The notes under the pieces were generated by a model. That model made no database searches, was not told the origin of the DNA, and worked only from the letters and a program-made list of their open reading frames with translations. Of a DNA stretch of 64,000 bases, positions 16,901 through 36,430 are shown piece after piece. Position 1 is the stretch's first letter; each line of letters starts with the position of its first letter. The position numbers were made by a program, and so were the translations under genes. The DNA lies in contig DATNQN010000151.1 in assembly GCA_036703985.1 (NCBI GenBank), positions 1-64,000 of the forward strand, read 5' to 3'. The stretch is from Leptolyngbyaceae cyanobacterium. GTDB taxonomy: Bacteria; Cyanobacteriota; Cyanobacteriia; Cyanobacteriales; Aerosakkonemataceae.

Positions 16901-19258
16901 CCAACAGAAGTTAAAACTAAGGTGGCGGTATATTTCTTTAGCAAACACTGGATAGAGCCACTCAAAGAAATATTCAATCCCTTGCGAGAACTGTACGCGG
17001 CTGGACTGGAAACCGGAGAATTAGAATATGCTTGCTGGGCTGCTAATCAGTACTGCGTAGTTGCTTTTCTAAGCGGTTCCGAATTGAAGCAAATAGCCTC
17101 AGAAATGAGTACCTACAGTTCGTTTTTTAGGGAAAAAGGGCAAAAAACTATTAGTGAGTATCATAGTATATATCACCAGACAGTCCTAAATTTGCTAGGG
17201 GAGGCGAAAAATCCCTGTTATTTGATAGGCAATTTCTTTGACGAGCGGGCGATGATACCCCTACTTCAAAGCAGAAATGACTATTTTGCTCTATTATGTG
17301 TGTACTTAAAAAAATTAATGCTTTGCTTCCTCTTTGGTGAGATAACCTTGGCGGTGAACACTGCTAAAGTCGCCAAGCCTTACGTAGATAGTCTCAGAGT
17401 CAGTCCCTTAATCTTTCACTTTTATTTTTATGAATCCCTAGCGTATCTGGCAGCGGTCAATGCCAAGGACTCCGTGAGTGAAGTTACTACGGAGTTTCCC
17501 CGACAACAACTGCTCCAAAAAGTGCAGCAAAATCAGAACCAATTGCGGAAATGCGCCCATTACGCTCCTATGAACTATTTGCAGAAATATCTGCTAGTGG
17601 AAGCTGAACGTTATCGGGTACTGGGGAAAGACAATTTGGCAATGGAGATGTACGACAAAGCTATCACCAAAGCCAAAGAAAACGACTACATCCACGAAGT
17701 TGCTATAGCTTACGAACTCGCCGCCAAATTTTATCTATCCAAAGGGAAAGAACTGATAGCAAAAGCTTATATGCAAGAAGCTCGCTATCACTATCAACTC
17801 TGGGGTGCAGCTGCTAAAGTCAAACATTTAGACCAACAATACTCGCAATTATTAAGTACAACTCAAACAAAAATCAAAGACGCTAAAACTTCCGCCGGAG
17901 TAACGACTACTGGTTCTGGTAGCAACCTCGATCTTGCCTCAGTAATGAAAGCATCCCAAGCAATTTCTGGCGAAATCGTGCTGGATAAATTACTTTCTAG
18001 CTTGATGAAGATTCTCATCGAGAATGCCGGAGCGCAAACGGGCTACCTGATTTTGTCAGAGCGGGGAAAACTACTAATTGAAGCATCAGGAACAATAGAC
18101 GAAGAACAGGTGACAGTGTTGCGATCGCTTCCCGTTTCCAAATGTCAAACACTTTCTGAAACGATTGTCAATTATGTGGCACGAACTCAAGAAACTGTAG
18201 TGCTAAATGATGCTACCCGTGAAGGCAAATTTACCAACGATTCTTATATCAAGGAGCATCAGCCTAAGTCAATTTTATGCTTACCTCTGATTAATCAAGG
18301 CAGACTAATCAGTATAGTTTATTTGGAAAATAACCGCTCGATCGGGGCTTTTGCACCTGAAAGACAGGAAATTTTAAATCTGCTTTCATCTCAAGCAGCA
18401 ATTTCTATAGAAAACGCTCAACTCTACAATAATATGGCGAAACTGAACCGAGCTTACGAGCGTTTTGTCCCCAGTCAATTTCTCCAATTTTTAGATAAAT
18501 CAAGCATTGTTGACGTGGAATTAGGCGATCAAGTGCAGTTAGAAATGTCGGTGCTGTTTTCCGACATTCGCGATTTCACTACTTTGTCAGAAAAAATGAC
18601 GCCAGAAGAGAATTTCAAGTTTATCAATTCCTATCTTTCACGCATGGAACCTGTCATTACTGAAAATCACGGTTTTATTGATAAATATATTGGCGATGCA
18701 ATTATGGCTTTATTTAGTGGCGAAGCTGATAATGCAGTGAAAGCTGGCATTGCCATGCTAAACCAACTGCCACAATACAATCAACATCGCGCTAATTGTG
18801 GCTACGTGCCAATTCAAATTGGGATTGGCATTAATACAGGTTTGTTGATGTTGGGAACCGTTGGCGGACAAAATCGCATGGATGGTACGGTGATTAGCGA
18901 TGCGGTGAATTTAGCTTCTCGCGTGGAAGGGTTAACTAAAAATTATGGCGTGTCGCTGTTAATCACCGAACAAACTTATTCGCGTTTGACAAATCCGGCT
19001 AACTATGCGATTCGCACGATCGACACGGTGAAAGTCAAGGGGAAATCTCAAGGGGTGACGGTTTATGAGGTTTTCGATGCCGATTTACCGGAAATTAAAG
19101 AGGGGAAATTAACTACTCTGCCATTGTTTGCAGAAGCTTTGTCATTGTACGCTGAAGGGAAGTTCGCTGAAGCAGGACGGCTGTTTGCAGATTGTTGGCA
19201 AAAAAATCCTGGCGATCGCGTTGCTAAAATCTATTTGGAACGTTGCCAAAATAACTAG
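13943..19258 (+). CDS. giant Ser/Thr kinase-AAA ATPase-GAF-adenylate cyclase
   Basis: A 1771-residue signalling protein. Residues 5-270 are a Hanks-type kinase with VLK-type lysine at 36, HKDINPSN with catalytic Asp at 128, DFG Asp at 147 and an MSPEQTGR activation segment. Residues 300-620 are an AAA/STAND ATPase (GYSGIGKT near 326, LAIFIDDLQWAD near 455). Residues 650-1300 are a TPR-like helical region. A GAF domain spans about 1335-1495. A class III cyclase spans about 1530-1710: FSDIRDF and YIGDAIMALF hold the two metal-binding Asp, and DAVNLASRVE supplies the transition-state Asn and Arg. Fusions of kinase, ATPase and GAF are common in filamentous cyanobacteria, usually ending in a histidine kinase; here the output is a cyclase, so phosphorylation and cAMP may be joined in one chain. 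Confidence 0.93.
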   Translation: MLNIPDVSVQTKIYESANSLVYRAIRESDNQPIILKLLKENYPTPQELARYRTEYEITKSLNLTGVVKVYDLQKYQNTLVMFLEDFGGESLRVWMQQRSFTLEEFLKIAIATTDTLGQIHAANIIHKDINPSNIVYHPATGQLKIIDFGISTKLTRENPTIKNPNVLEGTLAYMSPEQTGRMNRSLDYRTDFYSLGVTFYELLTGKLPFETTDALELVHCHIAKQPLSPSELNSEIPQLIADIVMKLMAKTAEDRYQSALGIKADLEECLYQLNQNGNISHFRIAQQDISDKFQLPQKLYGREQEIETLLTAFARVTFQSEMILIAGYSGIGKTALVQEIYKPITEKRGYFISGKFDQYQRNIPYSAIAAALRELIKQLLSEPETKLNEWRSQLQAALGNNGQVIVEAIPEVELIIGKQPAVPEVGLNESQNRFNLVFQNFIKVFTKTEHPLAIFIDDLQWADGASLKLIQLLMSGASTGLFLIGAYRDNEVSSAHPFILTVEELAKTGAKIERVFLSPLPLTTVTQIISDIFKYSKERAKPLAELVVLKTGGNPFFLNEFLKSLYTEGLLVFDLDNRCWQWNLEEIQRRGFTDNVVELMTGKIQKLPETAQEMLKLAACIGNQFDLETLGLIAEKSLKETANGLYAALVESLVVPLGNMGNVELAIAAAEFPSRQSPTALSQSVEYKFVHDRIQQAAYSLIPDHTKKIFHQQIGQVLLKNTSPEDREEKIFDIVNQLNFSLSLITEQSERDELAQLNLIAGKKAKLSAAYQPALNYLQVGIELLDTDSWQQQYSLTLSLYEEAAEVAYLNANFELMERLVEAVLSDAKTVLDKVKVSEVKILAYMAQANFLSAIDVALKVLKMLGVRLPRNPSQIDILWGLLEIKARVGFRPIASLVNLPVMSNPYPKAAMRILSAIGTSSFQAVPMLYLLMVFKMVSLSIKWGNAAESAVGYNAYGPILCNILNDIETGCQFGQLALNLQVVFNPTEVKTKVAVYFFSKHWIEPLKEIFNPLRELYAAGLETGELEYACWAANQYCVVAFLSGSELKQIASEMSTYSSFFREKGQKTISEYHSIYHQTVLNLLGEAKNPCYLIGNFFDERAMIPLLQSRNDYFALLCVYLKKLMLCFLFGEITLAVNTAKVAKPYVDSLRVSPLIFHFYFYESLAYLAAVNAKDSVSEVTTEFPRQQLLQKVQQNQNQLRKCAHYAPMNYLQKYLLVEAERYRVLGKDNLAMEMYDKAITKAKENDYIHEVAIAYELAAKFYLSKGKELIAKAYMQEARYHYQLWGAAAKVKHLDQQYSQLLSTTQTKIKDAKTSAGVTTTGSGSNLDLASVMKASQAISGEIVLDKLLSSLMKILIENAGAQTGYLILSERGKLLIEASGTIDEEQVTVLRSLPVSKCQTLSETIVNYVARTQETVVLNDATREGKFTNDSYIKEHQPKSILCLPLINQGRLISIVYLENNRSIGAFAPERQEILNLLSSQAAISIENAQLYNNMAKLNRAYERFVPSQFLQFLDKSSIVDVELGDQVQLEMSVLFSDIRDFTTLSEKMTPEENFKFINSYLSRMEPVITENHGFIDKYIGDAIMALFSGEADNAVKAGIAMLNQLPQYNQHRANCGYVPIQIGIGINTGLLMLGTVGGQNRMDGTVISDAVNLASRVEGLTKNYGVSLLITEQTYSRLTNPANYAIRTIDTVKVKGKSQGVTVYEVFDADLPEIKEGKLTTLPLFAEALSLYAEGKFAEAGRLFADCWQKNPGDRVAKIYLERCQNN

Positions 19259-20189: not shown

Positions 20190-20699
20190 ATGCTTATCAG
20201 AGCTTCAGGTAGTATTTACGGTGATGAGTTAATTACAGCAACTGAATTGAATCGGCAGCCAGGGCGGGTGTTAGATACGGCTTGGGAACGTCCGGTGACA
20301 ATTACTCGCAACGAACAACATTTTGCCTTGTTGCGTCGCGATCGCATGACGTATATGGTGAAGGCAGCTACGATGAGCCAAGTTGTATTTGAGGCGATCG
20401 ATGTTGCCTATAGATTACGCTTGGGAGAACAAATTGATTCGGCGCATTCATTCGGATGGCTAAGGGAATTTGATTCGGATGAACTAACTGAATTTATTAC
20501 AGAAGTAGAAAGTGCGTATCGCCTTGTGGGAGAGGAATCAGAAGGGTGGGATAAGCTGGATGCACTGATTCATGAGTGGCATGAAAGCGCGATCGCAATT
20601 AGTAGCGAAGCACTCGCCGCAGCTTTCGATGATGAAGTTGATGAAGCGTTACTGACAAAGCCAATCAGTGAAAACACTCTAGAATCAGCTGAAGTATGA
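20190..20699 (+). CDS. Phd/YefM-like antitoxin
   Basis: A 169-residue predicted antitoxin. The N-terminal 50 residues match the Phd/YefM DNA-binding fold (ITATELNRQPGRVLDTAWER then PVTITRNEQHFALLRRD). The remaining 120 residues are acidic and helical, longer than a typical 80-90-residue YefM, and presumably neutralise the toxin. Its stop overlaps the start of the toxin gene in an ATGA arrangement (20696-20699). Antitoxins of this type usually repress their own promoter, which would lie at 20128-20189. Confidence 0.78.
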   Translation: MLIRASGSIYGDELITATELNRQPGRVLDTAWERPVTITRNEQHFALLRRDRMTYMVKAATMSQVVFEAIDVAYRLRLGEQIDSAHSFGWLREFDSDELTEFITEVESAYRLVGEESEGWDKLDALIHEWHESAIAISSEALAAAFDDEVDEALLTKPISENTLESAEV

Positions 20700-21163
20700 C
20701 TCATTCCTCTCCAAAAGAACCCAATGAAGAAGGAAATGTGGGGCAGCCAGAGGAACAACTAACAGGATATATTTCCTCTAGTTTGGTGATACCACCAGAG
20801 GAACAATTAACAACACCACCAATTACGGCTGATACTGAAGAAAACTTTGCCGAAGAAGCAACAAAAGTACCTGCATCGACTTGGTTAGTAGTTGCCAAAA
20901 ATCGACGAGTTAATCGAGATTGGGAAGCGTTGCTCGTGCGTGCGCCAGAAAGTGCTAAACGCTGTTATCAGGATTTATGTACTGTTCCTATGGTGAGAAA
21001 ACCAAAACGAGTTTTTCCCTTGAAAGGAAAGCGTTATCAGGGCGCGTGGGAATATGAGGTAACTAGTTCCGATCGGGTATTTTATGTACCTGATGAAGAA
21101 AAACGCAAAGTACTTGTTTATTATGCAGGAAAACATCCAAAAACGGCTCCTATTCCTCCTTAA
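20696..21163 (+). CDS. RelE/ParE-like toxin with acidic N-terminal extension
   Basis: A 155-residue predicted toxin. The C-terminal 90 residues form a RelE-like domain (RRVNRDWEALLVRAPESAKR, then FPLKGKRYQGAWEYEV and a final DRVFYVPDEEKRKVLVYYAGKH), consistent with an mRNA interferase or gyrase poison. The first 60 residues are acidic, Pro/Glu-rich and disordered-looking, an addition not usual in RelE. Translation is coupled to the antitoxin by a 4-nt overlap. The dnd helicase starts 70 bp downstream, which places this pair at the left border of the defence island. Confidence 0.78.
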   Translation: MTHSSPKEPNEEGNVGQPEEQLTGYISSSLVIPPEEQLTTPPITADTEENFAEEATKVPASTWLVVAKNRRVNRDWEALLVRAPESAKRCYQDLCTVPMVRKPKRVFPLKGKRYQGAWEYEVTSSDRVFYVPDEEKRKVLVYYAGKHPKTAPIPP

Positions 21164-21233: not shown

Positions 21234-22760
21234 GTGAAGTCGTCCTCCAAGGGTGTGTATAAAGTCCAAAATCAGAAGGGTTTAGCTAAAAATAACGATG
21301 AAGCTTACCCGTTGTTGGAAATCAATAGAATTCTCAGGGTAGCTGCTTCTAAAGGTACTTATCATGTATCGCCAGGGAAACAAGCAGCGCCGGGATGTCC
21401 GAGAATACCGTCATGGCTACAGTTGCGGGGATATCAGCAACAAGCGATCGCAAATTGGTTTGGCAATAATGGAAGAGGGACGTTGAAGATGGCGACTGGT
21501 AGCGGAAAGACGATTACCGGATTAGCGATCGCAACTGAACTTTATCATAAAATTGGTTTGCAAGTTCTTTTAGTAGTTTGTCCTTATCGCCATTTAGTTA
21601 GCCAATGGGCGCGAGAATGCGAGAAATTTGGTATTAACGAGCCAATTTTAGCATTTGAAAGTTTGCGGCGCTGGCAAGATAAACTTTCCACTCAACTATA
21701 TAATGTGCACTCTGGTAATCAACCATTTTTGACCGTAATTACTACCAATTCAACATTAATTAGTGATGGTTTTCAATCACAACTAAATTATTTGCCCCAA
21801 AAAACCTTAATTATCGGAGATGAAGCGCATAATTTAGGTGCACCTCGCTTAGAAGAAAGTTTACCTCGTAATATTGGATTGCGGCTAGCTTTATCTGCAA
21901 CACCAGAAAGATATTTTGATGAAGACGGTACGCAATCTTTATTTGATTATTTTGGCACGGTTTTGCAACCTGAATTTACCTTGAGAGATGCGATTCAACA
22001 AGGAGCGTTAGTACATTATCTTTATCATCCAATTTTAGTAGAATTAACTGAAGCAGAGAGTCAGAGTTATATAAAAATAACTAAAAAAATTGGTCGTTCT
22101 TTGATATATCGTCAGCGGGAAGGACAACCAGATAGCATTTTCGATGAAGAAAATGAAGACCTCAAAACATTGTTGATGAAAAGAGCGAGAATCATCGGTT
22201 CTGCTGCTAATAAGTTAGATGCTTTACGCGACTTAATGTATAACAGATTAGATACTAGCCACACTTTATTTTATTGCGGTGATGGTTCGATGGAAAGCAC
22301 CCATCAATTAAAGGCAGTAACCAGAATTTTAGGAACTGAATTAGGATATAGAGTCAACACTTATACAGCAGAAACTTCTTTGGAAGAAAGAGAGATTTTG
22401 CGATGCCAATTTGAAACAGGAGAATTGCAAGGTTTAGTGGCAATTCGATGTTTAGATGAAGGAGTAGATATTCCCGCCATTCAAACAGCCGTAATTTTAG
22501 CAAGTAGTGGAAATCCTCGCCAATTTATTCAGCGACGCGGTAGAGTTTTGCGTCCTCATCCAGGGAAAGAAAGAGCAACTTTATTTGACATGATAGTATT
22601 ACCTCCAGAGTTAGATAGAGAAACCTTGCAAGTCGAACGCAACTTATTAAGAAGAGAATTAAGAAGACTAGTTGAATTTGCTGATTTAGCAGATAACGCA
22701 GGAGAAGCAAGAATGAAATTACTTAGTTTGCAAAAACGATATGGCTTATTAGATATTTGA
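21234..22760 (+). CDS. SF2 DEAH helicase, dnd-associated restriction protein
   Basis: A 508-residue superfamily 2 helicase of the type that I recall as linked to DNA phosphorothioation (TIGRFAM family 'DNA phosphorothioation system restriction enzyme'). The Q-like motif LRGYQQQAIANWF precedes motif I ATGSGKT near residue 87, motif II GDEAH with Asp at 196, motif III LSATPER, and motif VI QFIQRRGRVLRP near 435. No nuclease domain is visible in the chain, so cutting would need a partner such as the Uma2-type protein downstream. The start is GTG at 21234. Homologues of similar size are found beside dnd genes in cyanobacteria. Loss of the usual dndFGH genes here makes this the candidate restriction motor. 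Confidence 0.82.
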   Translation: MKSSSKGVYKVQNQKGLAKNNDEAYPLLEINRILRVAASKGTYHVSPGKQAAPGCPRIPSWLQLRGYQQQAIANWFGNNGRGTLKMATGSGKTITGLAIATELYHKIGLQVLLVVCPYRHLVSQWARECEKFGINEPILAFESLRRWQDKLSTQLYNVHSGNQPFLTVITTNSTLISDGFQSQLNYLPQKTLIIGDEAHNLGAPRLEESLPRNIGLRLALSATPERYFDEDGTQSLFDYFGTVLQPEFTLRDAIQQGALVHYLYHPILVELTEAESQSYIKITKKIGRSLIYRQREGQPDSIFDEENEDLKTLLMKRARIIGSAANKLDALRDLMYNRLDTSHTLFYCGDGSMESTHQLKAVTRILGTELGYRVNTYTAETSLEEREILRCQFETGELQGLVAIRCLDEGVDIPAIQTAVILASSGNPRQFIQRRGRVLRPHPGKERATLFDMIVLPPELDRETLQVERNLLRRELRRLVEFADLADNAGEARMKLLSLQKRYGLLDI

Positions 22761-22769
22761 TAATTTAAG

Positions 22770-22944
22770 AACCGCAGATGAAATCCTTTATCCATGAACC
22801 TCACAAAAAAGATAACACCAACATCTGCATTCATATGTGGACATCTGCGGTAAAAAGCACCAACCTAACATCCCACAAAAAATATCAAAACAACATCTGT
22901 GTTTATCTGTGTTCATCTGTGGACATCTGTGGTAAAAAAAATAT
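22770..22944. repeat. 12-bp-period repeat, copy A (mixed orientation)
   Basis: After the helicase stop comes one short forward unit (accgcagatg, 22770-22780), then two reverse-strand blocks at 22820-22857 and 22892-22942. On the minus strand the second block reads ACCACAGATGTCCACAGATG and continues with 12-bp units, followed by a GTGGGATGTTAGG spacer that recurs in other copies. It fills most of the gap before the 57-residue gene. Confidence 0.85.
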
Positions 22945-22969
22945 ATAGCTTTCACCGAATCTTATCATA

Positions 22970-23143
22970 ATGAACGAAGAAATCAGTCTAAGCTACGTCC
23001 AAGAACCCATTACAACCGCACCTCCAGAAGTGCGACAAATTATTGAACGAGTAAAACAAGCTGAAAAAGATAAACTTTATATGCCAAAACCAAAAGGCAT
23101 TAATGACGACATTCTCACGATTATTAAGGAATGCGTTAAATGA
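22970..23143 (+). CDS. 57-residue protein coupled to SMC-like ATPase
   Basis: A short gene, MNEEISLSYVQEPITTAPPE to the C-terminus IIKECVK. It is charged, with a Pro-rich N-terminal half and a helical segment (VRQIIERVKQAEKDKL). The stop overlaps the ATG of the SMC-like ATPase gene (ATGA, 23140-23143), so the two are translationally coupled and probably form a complex. I do not recognise the family. Small partners are common beside SMC-like defence ATPases, which supports a structural or regulatory subunit. The start is the ATG at 22970. Confidence 0.7.
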   Translation: MNEEISLSYVQEPITTAPPEVRQIIERVKQAEKDKLYMPKPKGINDDILTIIKECVK

Positions 23144-25203
23144 GGTTAATTTCTATTAAACTTTGTAATTTTCGTTGTTTTTATGGTAAAACGCCAGAAA
23201 TTTTACTGGCTGGAGAAGAACAGCGAAATACTACAGTTATTCACGGTAATAACGGTGCTGGTAAAACTACTCTTTTGAATGGGTTTACTTGGGTGCTATA
23301 TGAAAAATTTACGGCTGCTTTTGCTTCGGAAGAACAATTAGTAAATAAAAGAGCGATCGCAGAAGCAAAAACCGGAGAAACTATCGAATGTTGGGTAGAA
23401 ATTGTTTGGGAACACTTCGGTAAACGCTATCGCGCCAAACGGGAATGTCGCGCCTACAAAGGTGACATCATCGAACAAGGAGAAAGCAAACTATATATGC
23501 AGATAGCTGGCGATGATGGCAGATGGCAATTTCCTCAACAGCTTCCGGAAGATATTATCGGACGAATTTTACCGGAAAGTTTGCATCAATATTTCTTTTT
23601 CGATGGAGAAAGAATCGAAAGATTTGTTCGTTCTGATAACAAAATCGAAATTGCGGAAGCAACGAAAACCATGCTGGGGATGGAAGTATTGGAACGTTCC
23701 ATCAAGCATTTGAAGGAAGCTAGAAAAACTTTGGAAGAAGAGTTAAAGGCAATTGGCAATACAGAAACGCGCAAACTCTTAAAGCAAAAGGAACAAAAAG
23801 AAAAAGAAATTGACCGATTAACTAATCGCCAAACTGAAATTAGTCAGGAATTAGCACATCAACAGACTTTGAAGAAAGAAACTAGTACTCGTTTTCGCGA
23901 TGTCAGCGGTGCGAAAGATTTAGAAGAAAGACGCAAGGAGTTAGGAGAAGAAAAAGGAAGAAATGTTACTAAGTTGAAACAAAGTCAGGAAACATTGCAA
24001 AAAGCTATTTCCACTAGAGGTTATACAGTTTTACTGCCAGAAATTACTGCTGAGTTCCGTGCGATCGTGAACGATCTAAAACAGCGGGGTGATTTAACAT
24101 CTGGCATTTCACGAGAATTTATTTATGATTTATTGAATTCTCAAATCTGCATTTGTGGCGCTGAATTAAATGAGGGAAATCATTTCCATCAAAATGTAAT
24201 TAATTGGCTGAATAAAGCAAGTATTGCAGCGGTGGAAGAAACGGCTATCCGCACGATCGCACAAGTGGATGAAGTGGACAAGCAAGCACTAAATTTTTGG
24301 GAAGATGTCGATCGAGAACAAGCTAATATTAACCAGATCAAGCAGGAAATATCGCGGATTGAAACTCAGATTGAGGATATTAGCGATCGATTGCGAAAAA
24401 ACCCCGCCGAAGAAATTCGCAATTTGCAAAAGCGATTGGATGAAATCGAAGGAAAAATCCGAGAATTAACTTTGGAAGAGGGCGAAAATAAGCAAAAAAT
24501 TACGGATTTAACCAACGAAGTAGAAGTTTTGGCTAAGCAAATTGCTAAACAAGAAATGAATGAAGCAAGGCAAGTGCTTACTCAACGGCGAATTGAAGCG
24601 ACTCAAGATGCGATCGATCGACTTATCCTATTTAGAACTAGGTTAGATCATCATTTCCGATCGCAGTTAGAAAAGCGAGTACAAGAGATTTTTAGTTCTA
24701 TATCTTTTAAGCCTTACTCGCCAAAAATTAGTGAAAAATACGAACTAAGTTTAGTAGAAAATACTGCTGGGAACGAAGCAAATGTGGCTGCTTCCACGGG
24801 AGAAAATCAAATCCTCAGTTTGTCTTTCATTGGCGGTATTATCGACAGAGTGCGCGAATGGAGTAAAGAAGAAATGATGGTACCCGATAGCAGCACCTTT
24901 CCCATCGTAATGGATTCACCTTTTGGCAGTTTGGATGAAATTTACCGCCGACAAATTGCCAAAATTATTCCCCAATTGGCTAATCAATTGGTGGTGTTAG
25001 TTACTAATACTCAATGGCGGGGTGAGGTAAAAGAGGAAATGACTAAACGTATTGGTAGAGAATACGTACTGACTTATTATTCTTCTAAGCCAGATTGTCA
25101 GGAGGATTTGATAGAGTTGGATGGGGTGCGTTATGCTTTGATAAAACAAAGTCCGAATGAATTTGAATATACGGAAATTGTGGAGGTAGAATATGAGTTT
25201 TAG
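23140..25203 (+). CDS. SMC/Rad50-like ATPase, DndD paralogue
   Basis: A 687-residue ABC-type ATPase. The N-terminal lobe holds GNNGAGKTTL (Walker A, residues 36-44). Two coiled-coil arms occupy about 180-280 and 385-500, with a hinge-like region that includes CIC at 337-339 in place of the CxxC of a zinc hook. The C-terminal lobe has an ABC signature-like STGENQILSLSFIGG near 548 and Walker B VMDSPFGSLDE near 590. It resembles DndD in layout but is clearly divergent from the DndD at 33543-35525. Placed between the helicase and a Uma2-type nuclease, it is more likely part of the restriction or sensing arm than of sulfur insertion. Translation is coupled on both sides. Confidence 0.85.
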   Translation: MRLISIKLCNFRCFYGKTPEILLAGEEQRNTTVIHGNNGAGKTTLLNGFTWVLYEKFTAAFASEEQLVNKRAIAEAKTGETIECWVEIVWEHFGKRYRAKRECRAYKGDIIEQGESKLYMQIAGDDGRWQFPQQLPEDIIGRILPESLHQYFFFDGERIERFVRSDNKIEIAEATKTMLGMEVLERSIKHLKEARKTLEEELKAIGNTETRKLLKQKEQKEKEIDRLTNRQTEISQELAHQQTLKKETSTRFRDVSGAKDLEERRKELGEEKGRNVTKLKQSQETLQKAISTRGYTVLLPEITAEFRAIVNDLKQRGDLTSGISREFIYDLLNSQICICGAELNEGNHFHQNVINWLNKASIAAVEETAIRTIAQVDEVDKQALNFWEDVDREQANINQIKQEISRIETQIEDISDRLRKNPAEEIRNLQKRLDEIEGKIRELTLEEGENKQKITDLTNEVEVLAKQIAKQEMNEARQVLTQRRIEATQDAIDRLILFRTRLDHHFRSQLEKRVQEIFSSISFKPYSPKISEKYELSLVENTAGNEANVAASTGENQILSLSFIGGIIDRVREWSKEEMMVPDSSTFPIVMDSPFGSLDEIYRRQIAKIIPQLANQLVVLVTNTQWRGEVKEEMTKRIGREYVLTYYSSKPDCQEDLIELDGVRYALIKQSPNEFEYTEIVEVEYEF

Positions 25204-25849
25204 TTCGTCCCCAGTTTCGGAAAAGTTGGTAACAGATACTTGGATGAAGGCTAGTTGGGAAGAGTTTCTCGCTTTAGCGGATCATCCTGATTACGAAAAG
25301 GGTAAATTTTATTATCATCAAGATTACATGAGGATTGAAATGGCAGCAGTTGGCCCACTTCACGGACGCGAAAATTCGGTTGTTTCTAGAGTCGTCAATT
25401 TTCACACAGCGTTTAGAAATATCCGAATGGTGGAATTGATTAATGCTAGTTTTCGCAAACCGAGTATCGTTGAATTTCAACCTGATTTATCTTATTATAT
25501 TGGTTCTGAATTTAGATTACCACCGCGAACTAATACACCAATTAATTTGAATGAATTCGATCCGCCAGCGTTAGTTATAGAAATTGGTGCGAGTTCGATT
25601 AGCGATGATTTAGGACAAAAACGGTTGATTTACGAACGTTCTGGCGTGCAAGAATATTGGGTGGTTGATGCTAGTATTTACGATACGATCGCATTTGAAA
25701 TTTCTGATAGGCGTAGTGGTGAAATTCAGGAATCGCGAGTGTTACCAGGTTTAAGTATGGCGTTAGTTGAAGAGGCATTAAAACGCAGCGAAACGCAAGA
25801 TGATGGGGAAATTAATCGCTGGTTAATTCAAACATTTAGTCAAATTTGA
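25193..25849 (+). CDS. Uma2-family PD-(D/E)XK-like nuclease
   Basis: A 218-residue Uma2 (DUF820) protein, a family with a restriction-endonuclease-like fold that is greatly expanded in cyanobacteria. The core shows PDLSYYIG near residue 98, PALVIEIGASSISDDLGQK around 122-141 with the family's Asp...Glu-x-x arrangement, and the QEYWVVD ending strand. Nuclease activity of the family is a structural prediction. The start overlaps the SMC-like ATPase by 11 nt, so it belongs to the same transcript. Uma2 genes usually stand alone; coupling to a DndD-like ATPase inside a dnd island suggests recruitment as the cutting subunit. Confidence 0.85.
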   Translation: MSFSSSPVSEKLVTDTWMKASWEEFLALADHPDYEKGKFYYHQDYMRIEMAAVGPLHGRENSVVSRVVNFHTAFRNIRMVELINASFRKPSIVEFQPDLSYYIGSEFRLPPRTNTPINLNEFDPPALVIEIGASSISDDLGQKRLIYERSGVQEYWVVDASIYDTIAFEISDRRSGEIQESRVLPGLSMALVEEALKRSETQDDGEINRWLIQTFSQI

Positions 25850-25867
25850 TAATGAAATAAAACGAGT

Positions 25868-26338
25868 ATGGGTGCTAGTAAAATTAAAATTGCTAAAGAT
25901 AAAGCTGATTTAGTAAAAGCTTTATCTTTCTCTAAGGAAACGACCGGGCCTTTTCAAACTTATGCTGATGTAATGGTGTTTGCTGCGGCGTTGGGTGCGA
26001 GGAGAAAAAAGCGCGTTCCTTTGGGGGAGATTTCTAAGCGAGACCCTTTGCCAATTGGGATTGAAATTTTTATTTCTAGGGGTTATGATACGACGATCAA
26101 GTTATTAGCGATCGCAGAAACTAAAGATATCAATATTATATCGCCTCATGATGAAAATTCGGAAGAACAACGTATCGCTATTTTTGAAGAATATGCTAAT
26201 GGTGGATTGGAGATTTTGCAGGAAGAGTTGCGGGGTGCGGTTGATTATTCGGAACGGCTTTTGTTAATTTTAGTTTCGGAACGGAGTAAGCAGAATAGAA
26301 TTGAAGGGGAGTTTGATTTGAGTAGTTTTTTGAGTTGA
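25868..26338 (+). CDS. DNA phosphorothioation-associated protein 4
   Basis: A 156-residue protein matching my memory of the dnd system-associated protein 4 family (TIGRFAM), with FQTYADVMVFAAALGARRKK near residues 29-48, followed by RVPLGEISKRDPLPIGIEIF and an acidic IFEEYANGGLEIL segment. The role is not known; the family is recognised by its co-occurrence with dnd genes. It follows the Uma2 gene by 18 bp and closes the left-hand operon of helicase, small protein, SMC-like ATPase and nuclease. Repeat copy B begins 11 bp after its stop. Confidence 0.75.
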   Translation: MGASKIKIAKDKADLVKALSFSKETTGPFQTYADVMVFAAALGARRKKRVPLGEISKRDPLPIGIEIFISRGYDTTIKLLAIAETKDINIISPHDENSEEQRIAIFEEYANGGLEILQEELRGAVDYSERLLLILVSERSKQNRIEGEFDLSSFLS

Positions 26339-26348
26339 TTTTAAGTTT

Positions 26349-26478
26349 GGGTGGGGTGTTTGGGATTAGTTTTTTACCACAGATGTCCACAGATGAACAC
26401 AGATGAACACAGATGTTACTTCGATGTTTTCGGTGGGATTTTAGAGATTAGTTTTTACCGCAGATATTATCAGAAATC
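26349..26478. repeat. 12-bp-period repeat, copy B (forward)
   Basis: The core arm at 26370-26421 begins TTTTTTACCACAGATGTCC, then has repeated 12-bp CAGATGAACACA units and ends TTACTT. A spacer of GGTGGGATTTTAG type follows, then a second partial unit (TTTTTACCGCAGAT, to 26468). The 52-nt arm is an inverted copy of 26912-26963 with one mismatch by eye. Confidence 0.9.
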
Positions 26479-26503
26479 AAATTTTTTTCTATTTTACTAA
26501 TCC

Positions 26504-26830
26504 CTAACCCTCAACTTTTGTTCCATCAAGCATCACAATTGGTTCGTTACCGATGATTTCTGCGCTGTGGACTACTCCCCGATTTACATAAACGCTATCT
26601 CCCCCTTTCAAAATTACAGTTTCTCCGTCGATTGTCATGCGAAATTGTCCTGAAACTATGCCAGTCATTTTATCAACATCATGACTGTGATCCGGAAAAT
26701 CAGTACCGGGAGGAAACGTATAACTTTCAGATGGATAACCAAGTTTTTCTAACTTTTTCTGCAAAGCAGCTTCCGATAATTCACCATCTTGTTCCGGATT
26801 CCAATATTCAACTTGCATAACTCGAATCAT
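26504..26830 (-). CDS. small cupin-domain protein
   Basis: A 108-residue single cupin. The two cupin motifs are visible: PGTDFPDHSHDVDKMTGIVSG (motif 1, with His-x-His and a following Asp) and the later GDSVYVNRGVVHSAEII (motif 2 with the metal-binding His). It is probably a metal-binding beta-barrel; substrate unknown. The ATG at 26830 sits directly against an AGGAG site, too close for good initiation, so the ATG at 26818, 12 nt beyond the site, may be the real start. It is antisense to its left neighbours and sits between 52-nt inverted repeats, with no visible link to phosphorothioation. Confidence 0.85.
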   Translation of the reverse strand: MIRVMQVEYWNPEQDGELSEAALQKKLEKLGYPSESYTFPPGTDFPDHSHDVDKMTGIVSGQFRMTIDGETVILKGGDSVYVNRGVVHSAEIIGNEPIVMLDGTKVEG

Positions 26831-26832
26831 CT

Positions 26833-26970
26833 CCTATCTATCTTTCATCTGCGTTAATCTGCGGACATCTGCGTTAAAAAACTAACCCCCAACATCCCAC
26901 CCAAAATTGGAAAGTAACATCTGTGTTAATCTGTGTTCATCTGTGGACATCTGTGGTAAAAAAAAATTCC
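26833..26970. repeat. 12-bp-period repeat, copy C (reverse)
   Basis: On the minus strand this reads TTTTTTACCACAGATGTCC, then 12-bp units, TTACTT, a GGTGGGATGTTGGGGGTTAG spacer, and a second block with GCAGAT units ending beside the cupin start. The 52-nt arm (26912-26963) mirrors copy B. It ends 15 bp before the stop of the leftward DGQHR gene. Confidence 0.9.
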
Positions 26971-26977
26971 CAATCAC

Positions 26978-28579
26978 CTACGACAAAATAGCCGGCAATC
27001 CCACCTCCTTCGGCGCAACAAACTTACCGCTAAAACTCACCGCTTTATTCTCATAAGTTCTCGCCTCCGCCAACTCCCGCCGCAACTGCGCCCGTTCTAA
27101 ATCATCATCAACTCCCCCCAAAATATACACTATCAACTTAGTAGCTAAATCTCTGCCAGCAACCAAAACTCGCTTTTTATTCGGGTCATACAAAACACCA
27201 TACCAAAGCGATTCCGGATATTCCATATTACTAAAACCATCATCCGCGTCAAATTTATGCAATTTATCAAACACGGTTTGAAGCGAAAATCGGTTTTTAA
27301 ATACCACAATTCCCAAAGCTTGGGCCAAAGCTACTTGTCCTACCGGACGGAAAAGGATGTTACCTTCGCCGCCTTCTTTTTCAAAGCTGAAACGGCGCAT
27401 TTCTGGGGTTTCCGTACCGGATTCCAAACGACGAAAACTGGGCAGATTGGCTAAATTGTCAAATAATTTGGTAAATTCTGCAATGCCTTCTTCTAATTCC
27501 TCATCCTCCGGACGCATGGGAATTAAACCTTTTTTCTGGGGCAATTTCCATTGAGGAAATTTTGGCATCAGGTAACGTTCCGCCATTTCAGTTAATGCTT
27601 GCAAGGTGGTTAAAACTGTTGATTTGGCGGCGACGGTGGCACTATCCCAATTGACGCGGGGATTGCGTTTTTCTACATCTTTTAATATGGGATGAGTGAC
27701 AGCAATTTTTCTAGCAACAATCGCAAAACCGTTGTTTTCATCGAGTTGGGCTAGTTGTCCTTTAGTGAGGGGAACTGCCATTAAGTTGACGTGGACGAAA
27801 ACTGACCGGACTCTTCTTCTTGCTTCGTCGCGAGTTTCTCCCGGAACGACAGCAGAAATAAATTCAATACCGATTTTTTCTTTAGCTAAGTTTTGCAAAT
27901 AAGCGGGGTCGATTTGGAATTCGTCTCGCAAATCATCAACGGTAATGAAGCTACCAGCAGGTTTTTTCTCCTTTTTATATCGCTGGAGTTTACCTGTTTG
28001 GATTAACTCCATTAAACCTTGTACTCCCATTAAACGATGTTGTCCGTCTAAGGCAAAAATTGTGACATCTTCGGAAACGTTTAATAATCCTGCTTTGCCA
28101 TCTTTATCTAATGGAATAAAGTCAGCAGCGGATTTAATTGCTTTGCCATTACTTCCCCATTCTGGTGATTTTGGTTCGTCTACCCAAGGTTGATTTATGA
28201 CTACTAAAACTGGTGGGAATTTGTGATGTTTTCGGGCGGCTAAATATTGGGCTAATGATGCTTGGCGCGACCAATCTAAGGGACGTTGTTGAATTTCTTC
28301 GATTGTTTCGGCGTCGATTTCTACATTTTGGGTGTCGGCGTTGAATTTGGGACGGAAAAGGGGGAGGCGGGAGGCGAAGCGAACTCGACTGGCAAACCAT
28401 TCTAGGGTGACGGAACCGATATAAGCATCGCTGCCGCCCATTTCGATTTTTTGTACTAATATTTGGTCGTTTCGGCTGAGATATCTATCTAATAGTAAAG
28501 CTAGCGCCTGTTTTTCTTGATTTTCTCGTTCTAGGATTTGGCTGGCGAGGTCTGTTCCTGAGTTGCTGGGTATGGACAT
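26978..28579 (-). CDS. DGQHR-domain protein, dnd-associated
   Basis: A 533-residue protein with the DGQHR motif at residues 178-182 (FALDGQHRLMGVQ), flanked by the family blocks VTLEWFASRVRFASRLP and VFVHVNLMAVPLTKGQLAQLDENNGF. It belongs to the wider DndB/DGQHR family; the larger size and the location suggest the branch named DNA phosphorothioation-associated DGQHR protein 1. DndB itself is a repressor of dnd expression, so this one may regulate or sense modification. It is transcribed away from dndB, with a 215-bp divergent region. It contrasts with the other two DGQHR relatives here in length and in its C-terminal half. Confidence 0.82.
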   Translation of the reverse strand: MSIPSNSGTDLASQILERENQEKQALALLLDRYLSRNDQILVQKIEMGGSDAYIGSVTLEWFASRVRFASRLPLFRPKFNADTQNVEIDAETIEEIQQRPLDWSRQASLAQYLAARKHHKFPPVLVVINQPWVDEPKSPEWGSNGKAIKSAADFIPLDKDGKAGLLNVSEDVTIFALDGQHRLMGVQGLMELIQTGKLQRYKKEKKPAGSFITVDDLRDEFQIDPAYLQNLAKEKIGIEFISAVVPGETRDEARRRVRSVFVHVNLMAVPLTKGQLAQLDENNGFAIVARKIAVTHPILKDVEKRNPRVNWDSATVAAKSTVLTTLQALTEMAERYLMPKFPQWKLPQKKGLIPMRPEDEELEEGIAEFTKLFDNLANLPSFRRLESGTETPEMRRFSFEKEGGEGNILFRPVGQVALAQALGIVVFKNRFSLQTVFDKLHKFDADDGFSNMEYPESLWYGVLYDPNKKRVLVAGRDLATKLIVYILGGVDDDLERAQLRRELAEARTYENKAVSFSGKFVAPKEVGLPAILS

Positions 28580-28794
28580 TCGATTTTAGTTTTTCTTTGG
28601 GATGGGCCATTGGGGAATGGAGGCTGGAAAAAGCCTAGTCTATTTGTAAAACTTACCTATAAATAAAATTTTTGTCAATTTTGTTTTTAAAAACTTTAAG
28701 GTTTGTGATAAGATGATTGTAATGTAAACGCTTTAATACATACAAAGTAGATTTTGTCAATCAAAACTTATAAAATTTACTAAGATATGATGAG
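28580..28794. promoter_or_regulatory. divergent regulatory region, DGQHR / dndB operon
   Basis: This 215-bp AT-rich gap separates the leftward 533-residue DGQHR gene from the rightward coiled-coil and dndB genes, so promoters for both should lie here. No clear operator palindrome was seen. It is a natural place for DndB-type autoregulation. Confidence 0.55.
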
Positions 28795-29244
28795 ATGACG
28801 CAAACACCAGGTAATAACGGAAATTCCAGCAGATTAGACCGTATTGAGGCGATTTTAGAACGATCGGTCCAAGATAGTGCCGAATTGCGATCGGCCCTTA
28901 CCCAGCTAACTCAGCGGGTAGATACTCTTACCGATCGAGTAGATATCGTCACCAGGCGGATGGACAATTTTGTGGAGAGAGTGGCGCGATATGAGGAACA
29001 AAATACTCTCAATCACTCTGAATTAGTGCGAGGGCAATCAATGATGACCGAAGTAATCAGACAACTTACCCTTGGACAAGCACAAATTGCTCAAAATATC
29101 ACGCAAATACAGCAAAATATGACCCAATTGCAACAAACAGTAGTGCAAATAGAAGAAACTCAAGCATCTTTAGCAGCAGGACAAGAAAGACAAGACCGAA
29201 TTTTAGATTATTTAATCCGAAAAATTGAGGGAGAAAATGCTTAA
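28795..29244 (+). CDS. coiled-coil protein upstream of dndB
   Basis: A 149-residue protein, helical throughout, with heptad-like repeats: LTQLTQRVDTLTDRVDIVTRR then FVERVARYEEQN and ITQIQQNMTQLQQTVVQIEE. It has no enzymatic motif. Such Gln-rich coiled coils occur in cyanobacteria in many contexts, so the family says little. Its stop overlaps the dndB start by 8 nt, so the two are translationally coupled, which hints that it works with DndB, perhaps by oligomerising it. Confidence 0.72.
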   Translation: MTQTPGNNGNSSRLDRIEAILERSVQDSAELRSALTQLTQRVDTLTDRVDIVTRRMDNFVERVARYEEQNTLNHSELVRGQSMMTEVIRQLTLGQAQIAQNITQIQQNMTQLQQTVVQIEETQASLAAGQERQDRILDYLIRKIEGENA

Positions 29245-30349
29245 AACTCCTACACCTTCGTTTGAATATGTATTACCAGTAATTCGGGGGATTCAATCAG
29301 GGCGCGAGTACTACGTTTCCATGTGTCCGGTACGATTGTTGCCGAAACTTTTTCCGATGGATGATGAAGAAATACTGCCTCAAATGCGGGTAGGGCGTAG
29401 TCTCAATCGCCAAAGATTATCAGAAATTAGAGAATATATTTTAGATAATCGAAATAATTATACTTTTTCGGCAATCACCGCTTCCATTGATGCGGATATT
29501 GTTTTTGAACCAATTGATACTGATAAGGAAGGGCGCAAAATCGGGCGATTGCGTGTACCGATGGATGGGCGATTTATTATTAATGATGGCAAACATCGAC
29601 GGGCGGCGTTAGAATTGGCGTTGAAGGAAAACCCGGATTTGGGATATGAAACGATCGCACTTGTCCTATTTTTGGATATCGGTTTGCAGCGTTCTCAACA
29701 GATTTTTGCCGATCTGAACCGTTATTCCGTCCCTCCCGATCCTAGTTTAAATATTCTTTACGATCGCCGGGATGAACAAGCTATCGTGGTAAAAGCTGCG
29801 ATCGAACAAGTTGCCGTTTTTCGCACTCTCACCGATCTCGAACGTAGCAACTTACCAGCGCGATCGAGTAAGCTATTTACCCTCAATAACATTTATAATG
29901 CTACTCTTGCCCTGTTAGTTAATCATCGCGATCGCGAATTGGCAAAACAGATCCAAATTGCGGTAGATTTTTGGAACGCGGTTAGCAGCTACATCCCTGA
30001 TTGGCAAAGGGTTTTAGCGAAAAATGTAGAGGCTGGGGAGATTCGACGAGATTACGTACACTGTCATGCGATCGCACTTTCCGCTTTGGGCGCAATTGGC
30101 GCTACTCTCCTGTCTGTTTATCCCGAAAATTGGTCTGAATATTTAGGAGGTTTACAGCAAATCGATTGGACGCGAACTAATCCAGATTGGGTAGGACACA
30201 TTCTCTCTAAAAGTGGTTTTTCTCAGTCTCGTCATAGTGTTAATTGGATGGTTGTTTATTTGAAAAAGAGGTTGAATTTACCGCTGACATCGGATGAGGA
30301 AAAGTTGGGAGTTTTTGGGGATTTAAAAACCGCAGATGAAAACAGATGA
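29237..30349 (+). CDS. dndB: DNA sulfur modification protein DndB
   Basis: A 370-residue DndB, the regulator of phosphorothioation genes. The N-terminus FEYVLPVIRGIQSGREYYVSM (split here by a variable site) and the block RLSEIREYILDNRNNYTFSAI are typical. The DGQHR motif is present as DGKHR at residues 117-121 with Lys replacing Gln. In other bacteria DndB represses the dnd operon and reduces modification. I chose the ATG at 29237, preceded by GAGGGAG, over a TTG at 29225. The last seven codons (KTADENR) lie inside repeat copy D, so the C-terminus has been shaped by the repeat. Confidence 0.92.
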   Translation: MLKTPTPSFEYVLPVIRGIQSGREYYVSMCPVRLLPKLFPMDDEEILPQMRVGRSLNRQRLSEIREYILDNRNNYTFSAITASIDADIVFEPIDTDKEGRKIGRLRVPMDGRFIINDGKHRRAALELALKENPDLGYETIALVLFLDIGLQRSQQIFADLNRYSVPPDPSLNILYDRRDEQAIVVKAAIEQVAVFRTLTDLERSNLPARSSKLFTLNNIYNATLALLVNHRDRELAKQIQIAVDFWNAVSSYIPDWQRVLAKNVEAGEIRRDYVHCHAIALSALGAIGATLLSVYPENWSEYLGGLQQIDWTRTNPDWVGHILSKSGFSQSRHSVNWMVVYLKKRLNLPLTSDEEKLGVFGDLKTADENR

Positions 30350-30390
30350 ACGCAGATGTAGGCGATAGCCTTGCCTTAGGCTACGCAGAT
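30325..30390. repeat. 12-bp-period repeat, copy D, with embedded palindrome
   Basis: Forward GCAGATGAAAACAGATGAAC units start inside the dndB C-terminus and continue past its stop. They are then broken by the palindrome TAGCCT-TGCCTT-AGGCTA (30366-30383), a type of small palindromic cyanobacterial repeat, before a final CGCAGAT. The smaller palindrome appears to have inserted into the older repeat. Confidence 0.8.
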
Positions 30391-30398
30391 TTGTTGGC

Positions 30399-31574: not shown

Positions 31575-31655
31575 ATAAAGGAATAAAATCAAAAAAAGCT
31601 ATTTAATTATCATAGCGCTATTAGGGGGTGTAAATTACAGATGATATATGATAAG

Positions 31656-33377: not shown

Positions 33378-33382
33378 GATGG

Positions 33383-35586: not shown

Positions 35587-35951
35587 AAATAAACCAGATT
35601 ACGGAGAAGATTATCGGTTGTGCTTTTACGGTGGGGAATAATTTGGGGTGTGGTTTTTTGGAGAAAGTTTACGAAAATGCTTTGGCATACGAATTACGTA
35701 AGACGGGACTACGAGTTCAAACACAGTATCAAATTAGAGTTTATTATGATGGCATAGTCGTTGGAGAATTTGCCGCAGACTTATTAGTAGAAGAATGCGT
35801 TTTAGTAGAACTAAAAGCCATCAAAACCATGACTGAAAAAGATAGGTCTCAATGCCTAAACTACCTTAAAGCAACCAACCTAACCATTTGCCTACTCATC
35901 AACTTCGGCAACCCCCAAGTCGAAATCAAACGAATAGCCCGCAACTTTTAA
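35562..35951 (+). CDS. GxxExxY protein (PD-(D/E)XK-like)
   Basis: A 129-residue member of the GxxExxY family, named for the motif seen here as GFLEKVYENALAYELR near residue 28. EFAADLLVEECVLVELKAIK around 65-85 has the Asp...Glu-x-Lys layout of the PD-(D/E)XK nuclease fold. Function is unknown. Its first seven residues, MNADERR, are encoded by repeat copy F, and an inverted copy G follows the gene, so gene and repeats look like one mobile or shuffled unit dropped between dndD and dndE. It is transcribed with the dnd genes if no terminator intervenes. Confidence 0.88.
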   Translation: MNADERRWEINQITEKIIGCAFTVGNNLGCGFLEKVYENALAYELRKTGLRVQTQYQIRVYYDGIVVGEFAADLLVEECVLVELKAIKTMTEKDRSQCLNYLKATNLTICLLINFGNPQVEIKRIARNF

Positions 35952-35977
35952 CCCCCAACCAAAAAAACAATCAAAAT

Positions 35978-36027
35978 CTTATCTGCGTTCATCTGCGTTC
36001 ATCCCTCTTCATCTGCGGTAAAAAAAT
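35978..36027. repeat. 12-bp-period repeat, copy G (reverse)
   Basis: ATCTGCGTTCATCTGCGTTC followed by ATCCCTCTTCATCTGCGG and a run of A is the inverse of copy F. It ends one or two bases before the dndE ATG, leaving no room for a normal Shine-Dalgarno site. Confidence 0.9.
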
Positions 36028-36028
36028 C

Positions 36029-36430
36029 ATGGAACCTCCAATCAACACCATCAAACTATCCCAAACAGCCAAAGACCAACTCCTCAAACTCCGACGCTTC
36101 ACCAAAATCGACCAATGGAACATCCTGTGTCGCTGGGCATTTTGTCGTTCCCTAGCCGAACCCAGCATCCCCTCCCCCGTCCCCATCATCACCGACAGCA
36201 ACGTCGAAATGTCCTGGCGAGTCTTCGGGGGTGAAATCTCCGATATCTTAATCCTCGCCCTCAAACAACGCTGCCAAAAAGACAACTTAGGCTGTGACAA
36301 AGAAACCCTTGCCAACCAATTTCGCCTCCACCTCCATCGAGGTATCGGCTACCTAGCAGGTGACCCAAATATTAAAAAGATCGAAGACTTAATTGCGATC
36401 GCAACTCAGGGGCTAAGTACTAAAAACTAA
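36029..36430 (+). CDS. dndE: DNA sulfur modification protein DndE
   Basis: A 133-residue DndE, a small helical protein that forms tetramers binding nicked DNA in the modification complex. Recognisable blocks are IKLSQTAKDQLLKLRRFTKI near the N-terminus, then WNILCRWAFCRSLAEPS and the C-terminal FRLHLHRGIGYLAGD. I chose the ATG at 36029 because earlier in-frame codons (from 35888) run through the GxxExxY gene and the repeat. Copy G abuts the start codon, so the usual ribosome binding site is absent and expression may depend on upstream translation. Confidence 0.93.
   Translation: MEPPINTIKLSQTAKDQLLKLRRFTKIDQWNILCRWAFCRSLAEPSIPSPVPIITDSNVEMSWRVFGGEISDILILALKQRCQKDNLGCDKETLANQFRLHLHRGIGYLAGDPNIKKIEDLIAIATQGLSTKN

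What the first reader, a model, noticed from the sequence alone, without database searches (positions are those of the whole stretch)
21234..26338. Candidate phosphorothioation-dependent restriction module without DndFGH
The island keeps dndB, dndC, dndD and dndE but no dndF, dndG or dndH. In their place is a coupled block: SF2 DEAH helicase, 57-residue protein (ATGA overlap), SMC-like ATPase, Uma2-type PD-(D/E)XK protein (11-nt overlap) and dnd-associated protein 4. Helicase plus SMC-like ATPase plus nuclease is a complete set for sensing and cutting unmodified DNA. The helicase and protein-4 families are known only by co-occurrence; recruitment of a Uma2 protein as the nuclease, with a tiny coupled subunit, has not to my knowledge been described.
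Basis: partly seen in the sequence, partly recalled or inferred. Interest (0 to 1): 0.9.

Follow-up and report, generated by a model that had tools for sequence, protein, structure and literature searches.

The report
Cyanobacterial Pbe defence with Uma2 nuclease
The gene block is a cyanobacterial version of a known virus-defence system that reads sulfur marks on DNA; its usual built-in DNA-cutting domain is missing and a gene for a different predicted DNA cutter sits in the middle of it, an arrangement that recurs in related bacteria.

Summary
Helicase = PbeA, 57-aa protein = PbeB by position, SMC-like ATPase = PbeC, protein 4 = PbeD (DndE-like). Two features are unusual. (1) PbeA lacks the N-terminal HKD/PLD nuclease; no HKD homologue was found elsewhere in the genome. 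(2) A Uma2 PD-(D/E)XK gene overlaps pbeC and precedes pbeD. Of 48 cyanobacterial loci with PbeC and PbeD, 31 carry a same-strand Uma2 between them, against 3 of 206 in five other gene gaps. The window's Uma2 subfamily is tied to PbeC, also in 7 genomes not used to build its profile and in 17 named loci. DndF, DndG and DndH are absent from the genome, with working controls. PbeA, PbeC and DndC occur together in 63 of 80 selected genomes, often unlinked, which challenges a published inference that cyanobacterial dnd lacks a restriction partner. Strict replacement of HKD by Uma2 is unlikely: some loci have both, and 17 of 48 lack Uma2. Best reading: Uma2 is an exchangeable nuclease effector of Pbe. 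No activity is shown. New variant of a known kind.

The parts
21234..22760 (+). PbeA-type SF2 (XPB/RAD25-like) helicase without the N-terminal HKD/PLD nuclease domain
   Evidence: TIGR04095 656 bits; the five PADLOC PbeA models that matched do so only from profile position 224-251 of 626-722; motifs GSGKT, DEAH, QRRGR present; PDB match to RAD25/XPB E 5.6e-25
22970..23143 (+). PbeB-position small protein, 57 aa, overlaps pbeC by 4 nt (ATGA)
   Evidence: no family hit; a relative found at 70 of 72 PbeC loci, 4-nt overlap in 64 of 70
23140..25203 (+). PbeC, CxC-type ABC ATPase
   Evidence: PADLOC PbeC 1093 bits; Walker A GNNGAGKT, CxC at 337-339, MDSPFG; the two cysteines invariant in 16 aligned sequences
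25193..25849 (+). Uma2-family PD-(D/E)XK protein of a Pbe-linked subfamily (here called Uma2W)
   Evidence: PF05685 78 bits; AlphaFold model pLDDT 92.7, best PDB matches are Uma2/DUF820-type structures; D98, K143 invariant and E130 nearly invariant in 34 aligned sequences
25868..26338 (+). PbeD (DNA phosphorothioation-associated protein 4), DndE-like
   Evidence: TIGR04062 201 bits; model matches DndE structures 7x4e, 5wtu, 4lrv at Z 8.6, next entry 2.2; Foldseek alone not significant, best E 0.27, also DndE
26978..28579 (-). DGQHR/DndB-like protein, recurrent companion in Pbe-Dnd loci
   Evidence: TIGR03187 184 bits; recurs on the same side in relatives
29225..30349 (+). DndB
   Evidence: TIGR03233 446 bits
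30399..31592 (-). second DndB-like protein
   Evidence: PADLOC DndB 58 bits
31749..33377 (+). DndC, phosphorothioation enzyme
   Evidence: PADLOC DndC 675 bits; TIGR03183 728 bits
33543..35525 (+). DndD
   Evidence: PADLOC DndD 782 bits (a PbeC-labelled model scores higher, 949, but the protein has no CxC)
35888..36430 (+). DndE (match starts at residue 51 of the ORF, so the true start is probably later)
   Evidence: PADLOC DndE 53 bits

Best explanation
The block is a cyanobacterial PbeABCD-type module that works with the phosphorothioate (PT) marks made by the neighbouring DndCDE. Proposed mechanism: PbeC (CxC ABC ATPase) and PbeD (DndE-like DNA binder) form a clamp that scans DNA for target sites and tells PT-marked host DNA from unmarked DNA; PbeB is a small regulator or adaptor; PbeA supplies helicase/translocase activity in trans; the Uma2 protein, co-translated with PbeC, is an exchangeable nuclease effector that nicks or cuts DNA held by the clamp. 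In this lineage the HKD nuclease that is fused to PbeA elsewhere is absent, so Uma2 is the only predicted nuclease left inside the window's module. Shown here: gene identities, conservation, absence of HKD, slot-specific Uma2 association, genome-wide co-occurrence with DndC. From the literature: PbeABCD blocks virus DNA replication in a PT-dependent way in an archaeon. Inferred: the clamp, the role of Uma2 and its activity.
For: Families and folds. Same-strand Uma2 in the PbeC-PbeD slot in 31 of 48 loci; 0 of 43 between PbeA and PbeB, 0 of 70 between PbeB and PbeC, 0 of 43 between PbeD and DndC (mean 3.5 kb), 3 of 32 between DndC and DndD, 0 of 18 between DndD and DndE. Two distant Uma2 subfamilies (W and N, separated by a long branch) use the same slot, in tandem in 7 loci. 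All 21 Uma2W matches above 340 bits in 386 genomes lie after PbeC (19 next to it, 2 as tandem second copies); 14 of the 21 built the profile and were chosen for that position, but the 7 others, all in loci not used for it, do so too; of the next 11 loci read, none has PbeC directly upstream. 17 of 80 named-genome loci repeat the arrangement. Presumed catalytic positions kept. PbeA and PbeC both in 91 genomes, of 98 and 93 that have each; PbeA, PbeC and DndC together in 63 of 80 selected genomes, in 30 of these 63 with DndC not within 20 kb of PbeC. No DndF, G or H in the window's genome. No HKD homologue in it (controls G193 and G170 ring).
Against: 17 of 48 PbeC-PbeD loci have no Uma2, so it is not an obligate subunit. 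Uma2 is a very common family here (76 matches in this genome) and other cargo also sits in the slot: a DUF3370/SLH protein, a methyltransferase, a PRA-PH-like protein, a YhcG-type nuclease, a polysaccharide deacetylase. Uma2W comes and goes on the PbeC tree (11 changes over 69 rows), and 12 of 51 members of its clade were not next to PbeC in the DNA held. The archaeal Pbe system showed no cleavage of viral DNA. HKD-domain homologues exist in 22 of the 55 other genomes searched, controls included, and two of them (G255, G074) are in short frames of 286 and 323 aa, so a separate HKD nuclease is not excluded there.
Confidence: 0.55

Rival explanations
1. Passenger: the gap between pbeC and pbeD is an insertion hotspot, and Uma2 genes (abundant in this genome) are cargo that does not take part in Pbe function.
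For: 76 Uma2 matches in this genome; unrelated cargo in the same gap in several loci; two Uma2 subfamilies plus a third cluster there; 11 changes of Uma2W on the PbeC tree; some Uma2W relatives live elsewhere; Uma2 also upstream of PbeA in 5 of 44 loci.
Against: Always on the pbe strand (31 of 31), rare in neighbouring gaps, one of them longer on average; start before the pbeC stop by 8-14 nt in window, L117, L123, L124, L130, L136, L085, L077; the 7 top matches independent of the profile all lie next to PbeC.
Confidence: 0.25
2. Strict replacement: Uma2W took over from the HKD nuclease when PbeA lost that domain, and is now the required cutting subunit.
For: Window PbeA lacks HKD; no HKD homologue in G000; Uma2W beside PbeC in many loci whose PbeA is short.
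Against: HKD-fused PbeA and Uma2W occur together in L085 and in 6 of 17 named loci (L085 and L240 are one organism); loci with short PbeA and no Uma2 are common.
Confidence: 0.1
3. No cutting: as reported for archaeal Pbe, the ATPase/helicase complex blocks replication of unmarked DNA; Uma2 is a back-up suicide or housekeeping nuclease.
For: SNJ1 DNA stayed intact in the archaeal study; stand-alone nucleases near Dnd loci were proposed as suicide back-ups (PMC10853773).
Against: That paper says such nucleases tend to lie at the boundaries of the systems; this one lies inside the operon and overlaps pbeC.
Confidence: 0.1

Closest known systems
PbeABCD (Haloterrigena jeotgali; PMC6459918), the CxC-ABC-ATPase/DndE systems of PMC10853773
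   Same: Order A-B-C-D, small B protein, CxC ABC ATPase, DndE-like D, next to dndCDE, no dndFGH in the locus
   Different: PbeA has no HKD/PLD nuclease domain; a Uma2 PD-(D/E)XK gene lies between pbeC and pbeD; in relatives PbeA is near PbeC in 44 of 91 genomes and not in 47, some of these split by contig ends
DndFGH (DptFGH) restriction
   Same: Partner role for PT modification
   Different: None of the three families found in the genome; different proteins
Uma2/DUF820 proteins (1wdj, 3ot2, 6okh, 9y1l)
   Same: Fold (Z 13.6-18.2); D, E, K positions conserved within the subfamily
   Different: Subfamily tied to pbeC; the solved ones bear titles such as putative nuclease or uncharacterized protein
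XPB/RAD25 helicase (2fwr, 6p66; XPB with Bax1 in 6p4w)
   Same: Helicase sequence match E 5.6e-25; XPB also pairs with a separate protein, Bax1 (that Bax1 is a nuclease is recalled)
   Different: Member of TIGR04095, linked to Pbe/Dnd

Membership tests
PbeABCD | PbeA: SF2 helicase of the dnd_restrict_1 kind | tested here: met
PbeABCD | PbeA: N-terminal HKD/PLD nuclease domain | tested here: not met
   matches start at position 224-251 of the PbeA models; upstream ORF ends 70 nt before; no HKD homologue in the genome at E<=1e-5
PbeABCD | PbeB: small protein before pbeC | tested here: inconclusive
   position and conservation met; no sequence link to archaeal PbeB tested, no family hit
PbeABCD | PbeC: CxC-type ABC ATPase | tested here: met
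PbeABCD | PbeD: DndE cognate | tested here: met
   TIGR04062; DndE fold at Z 8.6 against 2.2 for the next entry, Foldseek E not significant
PbeABCD | PT-dependent virus exclusion | not testable with these tools
   needs plating assays
DndFGH | dndF, dndG, dndH present | tested here: not met
   with two positive-control plasmids
Uma2 (PF05685) | PD-(D/E)XK Uma2 fold and conserved D, E, K positions | tested here: met
Uma2 (PF05685) | nuclease activity | not testable with these tools
   needs biochemistry

The most novel reading that the evidence does not exclude
Uma2W is a PT-gated nuclease of a split Pbe machine: PbeC-PbeD load it on unmarked DNA while PbeA, often encoded far away, drives the complex. 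This would give a function to a Uma2 subfamily (76 Uma2 matches in this genome alone), and would mean that the window's order, probably Cyanobacteriales, has a near-core PT restriction system that a survey looking for DndFGH missed.
Probability: 0.35. Interest if true: 0.75.

Novelty: new variant of a known kind. Interest (0 to 1): 0.55.

Why it matters
A 2021 study (PMC8569181, abstract and passages seen) found dnd genes vertically inherited in Cyanobacteriales, saw no DndFGH there, and inferred that PT probably began as an antioxidant device, restriction coming later; 'pbe' does not occur in its main text. Here PbeC is found in 90 of 105 genomes of the window's order and goes with DndC even when unlinked, so a restriction partner is probably present. 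The Uma2 association offers a concrete function to test for a family with 76 matches in this genome. It also reopens whether Pbe cuts DNA: here the HKD nuclease is gone and another nuclease gene is built in.

Tried and rejected
One search used a family accession that turned out to be GmrSD, not a Dnd family; not used. A detached HKD gene in the window's genome: none at E<=1e-5. A chance insertion of one of the genome's 76 Uma2 genes: one per ~101 kb would give about 0.65 in the 48 PbeC-PbeD gaps together (own arithmetic), against 31 loci; other genomes' densities were not measured. Uma2 tied to linkage with DndC: 30 of 43 loci with DndC downstream have Uma2, 2 of 26 without, but tree-corrected pairs are only suggestive (median p 0.06, range 0.008-0.45); no link with nearness of PbeA (22 of 42 and 10 of 27; median p 1). 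DndH over 80 genomes gave 0 hits with a silent control; the later plasmid controls show that the model works, while DndF and DndG were tested only in G000. Neighbours of Uma2W members not next to PbeC: no shared partner seen by eye, families not scanned, several contigs end nearby. Promoter and terminator scan: no more hits than shuffles. Specificity of Uma2 subfamily N was not searched genome-wide.

Rows dropped: of 103 helicase places (102 listed plus the window) 52 loci had a PbeC label; the 8 distant ones (under 300 bits) were left out, whose 72 loci are 44 with PbeA linked (window included) plus 28 of the 29 fetched unlinked ones. One search left out 3 loci with under 2.5 kb downstream. 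Uma2 genes under 120 aa were left out of the tree input; one search used 98 of 166 rows. L228 is titled Tatlockia but carries cyanobacterium-like genes, probably a mis-binned MAG. Literature: Uma2 with phosphorothioation, 0 papers; Uma2 family with cyanobacteria and endonuclease, 9 papers, listing only; Uma2 with defense system and phage, 3 papers, listing only; PMC7159879, fetched as the possible earlier CxC report, has no CxC, Uma2 or HKD in its text (passages). Supplements could not be read, so Supplementary Data S1 of PMC10853773 may list Uma2 among its REase genes.
Full report
What was checked. The five ORFs are present with the stated coordinates and overlaps. Profile searches name four of them: the helicase is TIGR04095 'DNA phosphorothioation system restriction enzyme' (656 bits, cut-off 600), the ATPase is PADLOC PbeC (1093 bits), the 218-aa protein is Pfam Uma2 (78 bits, cut-off 27), the last is TIGR04062 'DNA phosphorothioation-associated protein 4' (201 bits). 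The 57-aa protein has no family hit. DndB, DndC, DndD and DndE lie downstream together with two DndB-like genes on the other strand.

It is a known system. PbeABCD was described in the archaeon Haloterrigena jeotgali: a PLD-Res-helicase (PbeA), a 66-aa protein (PbeB), an AAA/SMC-like ATPase (PbeC) and a 152-aa protein (PbeD), in that order, beside dndCDEA; pbeB, pbeC and pbeD are needed and pbeA partly needed for exclusion of virus SNJ1, the effect needs PT marks, and viral DNA was not seen to be cleaved (PMC6459918, sections 8, 9, 10 read; passages). The same paper counts pbeAC in 235 bacterial dndCD regions and compares PbeC with a protein of the cyanobacterium Hydrococcus rivularis, so Pbe in cyanobacteria as such is not new. 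PMC10853773 (sections 16, 17 read; passages) renames the parts: HKD nuclease plus SF2 helicase, small disordered protein, CxC-type ABC ATPase, DndE cognate. The window meets this: PbeC has CxC at residues 337-339, invariant in 16 aligned sequences, while the window's DndD has none; the PbeD model (pLDDT 83) matches DndE structures at Z 8.6, the next entry at 2.2, though Foldseek alone gives no significant E-value (best 0.27, DndE).

What differs, 1: PbeA has no nuclease domain. The five PADLOC PbeA models that matched do so from position 224-251 of 626-722, and 70 nt separate the helicase start from the ORF before it. In 386 genomes of the phylum, 98 have a TIGR04095 match at E<=1e-60; those of the window's order mostly have open frames of 450-550 aa, while G193, G170, four genomes outside the class and five second copies have 688-757 aa. 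Eight of these 11 long proteins were read: all carry HxK and GSxNE motifs (that these mark HKD nucleases is recalled). Pfam's PLD model matches the G193 protein only weakly, 21 bits with cut-off 27. The HKD domain of G193 finds no homologue in the window's genome at E<=1e-5; 22 of 56 genomes searched have one, controls G193 and G170 included. Besides HKD-fused Pbe copies (54-71% identity), these are proteins at 27-41% identity, two of them in short frames of 286 and 323 aa. The helicase motifs are intact, and the best solved relatives are RAD25/XPB helicases.

What differs, 2: Uma2 in the pbeC-pbeD gap. In 72 loci with PbeC (window included), 48 also have PbeD downstream; 31 of these have a same-strand Uma2 between them (one, L196, a 48-aa fragment) and none an opposite-strand one. 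Other gaps in the same loci: PbeA-PbeB 0 of 43, PbeB-PbeC 0 of 70, PbeD-DndC 0 of 43 (mean 3.5 kb), DndC-DndD 3 of 32, DndD-DndE 0 of 18; 2 kb before PbeA 5 of 44; 2.5 kb after a PbeC without PbeD 1 of 24. The Uma2 genes belong to distinct subfamilies: W (the window's; 19 loci) and N (18 loci), in tandem in 7 loci, plus a third cluster.

Specificity of the W subfamily. A profile of 14 W proteins over 386 genomes gives 21 matches above 340 bits in 19 genomes; 19 lie next to PbeC and 2 are tandem second copies. Fourteen of the 21 built the profile and had been picked for their place, so they prove nothing; the 7 others (G155, G149, G048, G064, G153, G103, G087), found by sequence alone, all lie next to PbeC. 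Of the next 11 loci (L183-L193, about 1.5 kb each side), none has PbeC directly upstream; one has a PbeD-like stretch and one has scraps of PbeA and PbeC nearby. Weaker matches were not read. In the named genome collection, 17 of 80 loci have W directly after PbeC, among them Oscillatoria princeps, Microcoleus, Tychonema, Aphanothece, Hydrococcus, Anabaena, Aphanizomenon, Cuspidothrix, Pseudanabaena and Lyngbya. A Pseudanabaena galeata plasmid shows the same order with a short (77-aa) Uma2 gene. On a tree, W members form a supported clade of 51 rows, 39 beside PbeC and 12 not (quick method, SH-aLRT 96).

Is Uma2 a nuclease? The window's protein is predicted with confidence (pLDDT 92.7) to have the Uma2/DUF820 fold: 6okh Z 18.2, 1wdj 15.3, 3ot2 14.8, 9y1l 13.6, then 9.9 and 7.3 for other restriction-type folds. 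D98 and K143 are invariant and E130 nearly so in 34 aligned sequences; by motif, the corresponding D84, E108 and K122 are invariant in the 9 aligned N sequences. That these are the catalytic residues is recalled knowledge of the family. Activity is not shown.

Results against a simple story. HKD-fused PbeA and Uma2W occur together in L085 and in 6 of the 17 named loci (L085 and L240 are the same organism), so Uma2 did not simply replace HKD. 17 of 48 loci lack Uma2. Unrelated genes also enter the gap: a DUF3370/SLH protein, a methyltransferase, a PRA-PH-like protein, a YhcG-type nuclease, a polysaccharide deacetylase. Uma2W needs 11 changes on the PbeC tree of 69 rows. The passenger model is therefore kept at 0.25.

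A wider pattern. PbeC is found in 93 of 386 genomes at E<=1e-90, one match each, two of them partial (G151, G060); 90 of the 93 are among the 105 genomes of the window's order (own count of the kinship column). PbeA and PbeC are both in 91 genomes, near each other in 44 and not in 47, some of these split by contig ends, such as G262. In 80 genomes, chosen to hold most Pbe-positive and most Pbe-negative genomes of the order plus two outside it, DndC occurs with PbeC in 63, PbeC without DndC in 3, DndC without PbeC in 4, neither in 10; in 30 of the 63 DndC is not within 20 kb of PbeC on the same contig. Shared ancestry inflates the association, yet unlinked parts being kept and lost together suggests dependence. 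PMC8569181 (abstract and passages) reports dnd as vertically inherited in Cyanobacteriales, without DndFGH, and infers that PT restriction is absent there; 'pbe' is not in its main text.

DndFGH. DndH, DndF and DndG models find nothing in the window's genome and ring strongly in plasmids of Aliivibrio wodanis and Massilia sp. H6.

Verdict. A Pbe module (confidence about 0.95 for that filing as a variant, given the missing HKD feature) with a recurrent Uma2 gene as probable exchangeable nuclease effector (0.55). Novelty: new variant of a known kind. 'Not described' rests and on main texts only.

Noticed in passing
window 22822-36005, seven clusters: All 21 matches (up to 2 mismatches) of a 10-nt-unit repeat, CAGATGAACRCAGATG, in the 64-kb window lie in or at the edges of gene gaps of the Pbe-Dnd island (chance 0.04). 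It is also dispersed in the genome (7 of 30 Uma2 flanks, 105 kb) but rare in relatives' loci (9 of 131).
   Followed up: partly
window 20190-21163: Two overlapping small genes directly before the helicase look like an antitoxin-toxin pair by eye, but gave no family hit.
   Followed up: no
window 13943-19258: 1771-aa protein whose N-terminal part matches PADLOC PD-T4-6 (kinase-like, recalled) and whose C-terminal part matches PycC (Pycsar cyclase) models, upstream of the island.
   Followed up: no
L065, L097: Related 1008- and 1049-aa proteins directly after PbeC in two genomes without detected PbeD; the L097 one was scanned and has DUF3854 and a weak ResIII match.
   Followed up: partly
L117, L123, L124, L130, L136 (46-259 nt before PbeA): A further Uma2 gene, not of the W subfamily, directly upstream of PbeA in 5 of 44 PbeA-linked loci, all of family code f7.
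   Followed up: partly
own genome G000: 76 Uma2 matches in 7.68 Mb, some with stop codons inside.
   Followed up: no
L067, L076, L079, L084, L091, L103, L126: One cluster of related genes in the pbeC-pbeD gap; the L084 one (632 aa) was scanned and is a DUF3370 protein with S-layer homology domains; shorter pieces in L067, L079 and L126.
   Followed up: partly
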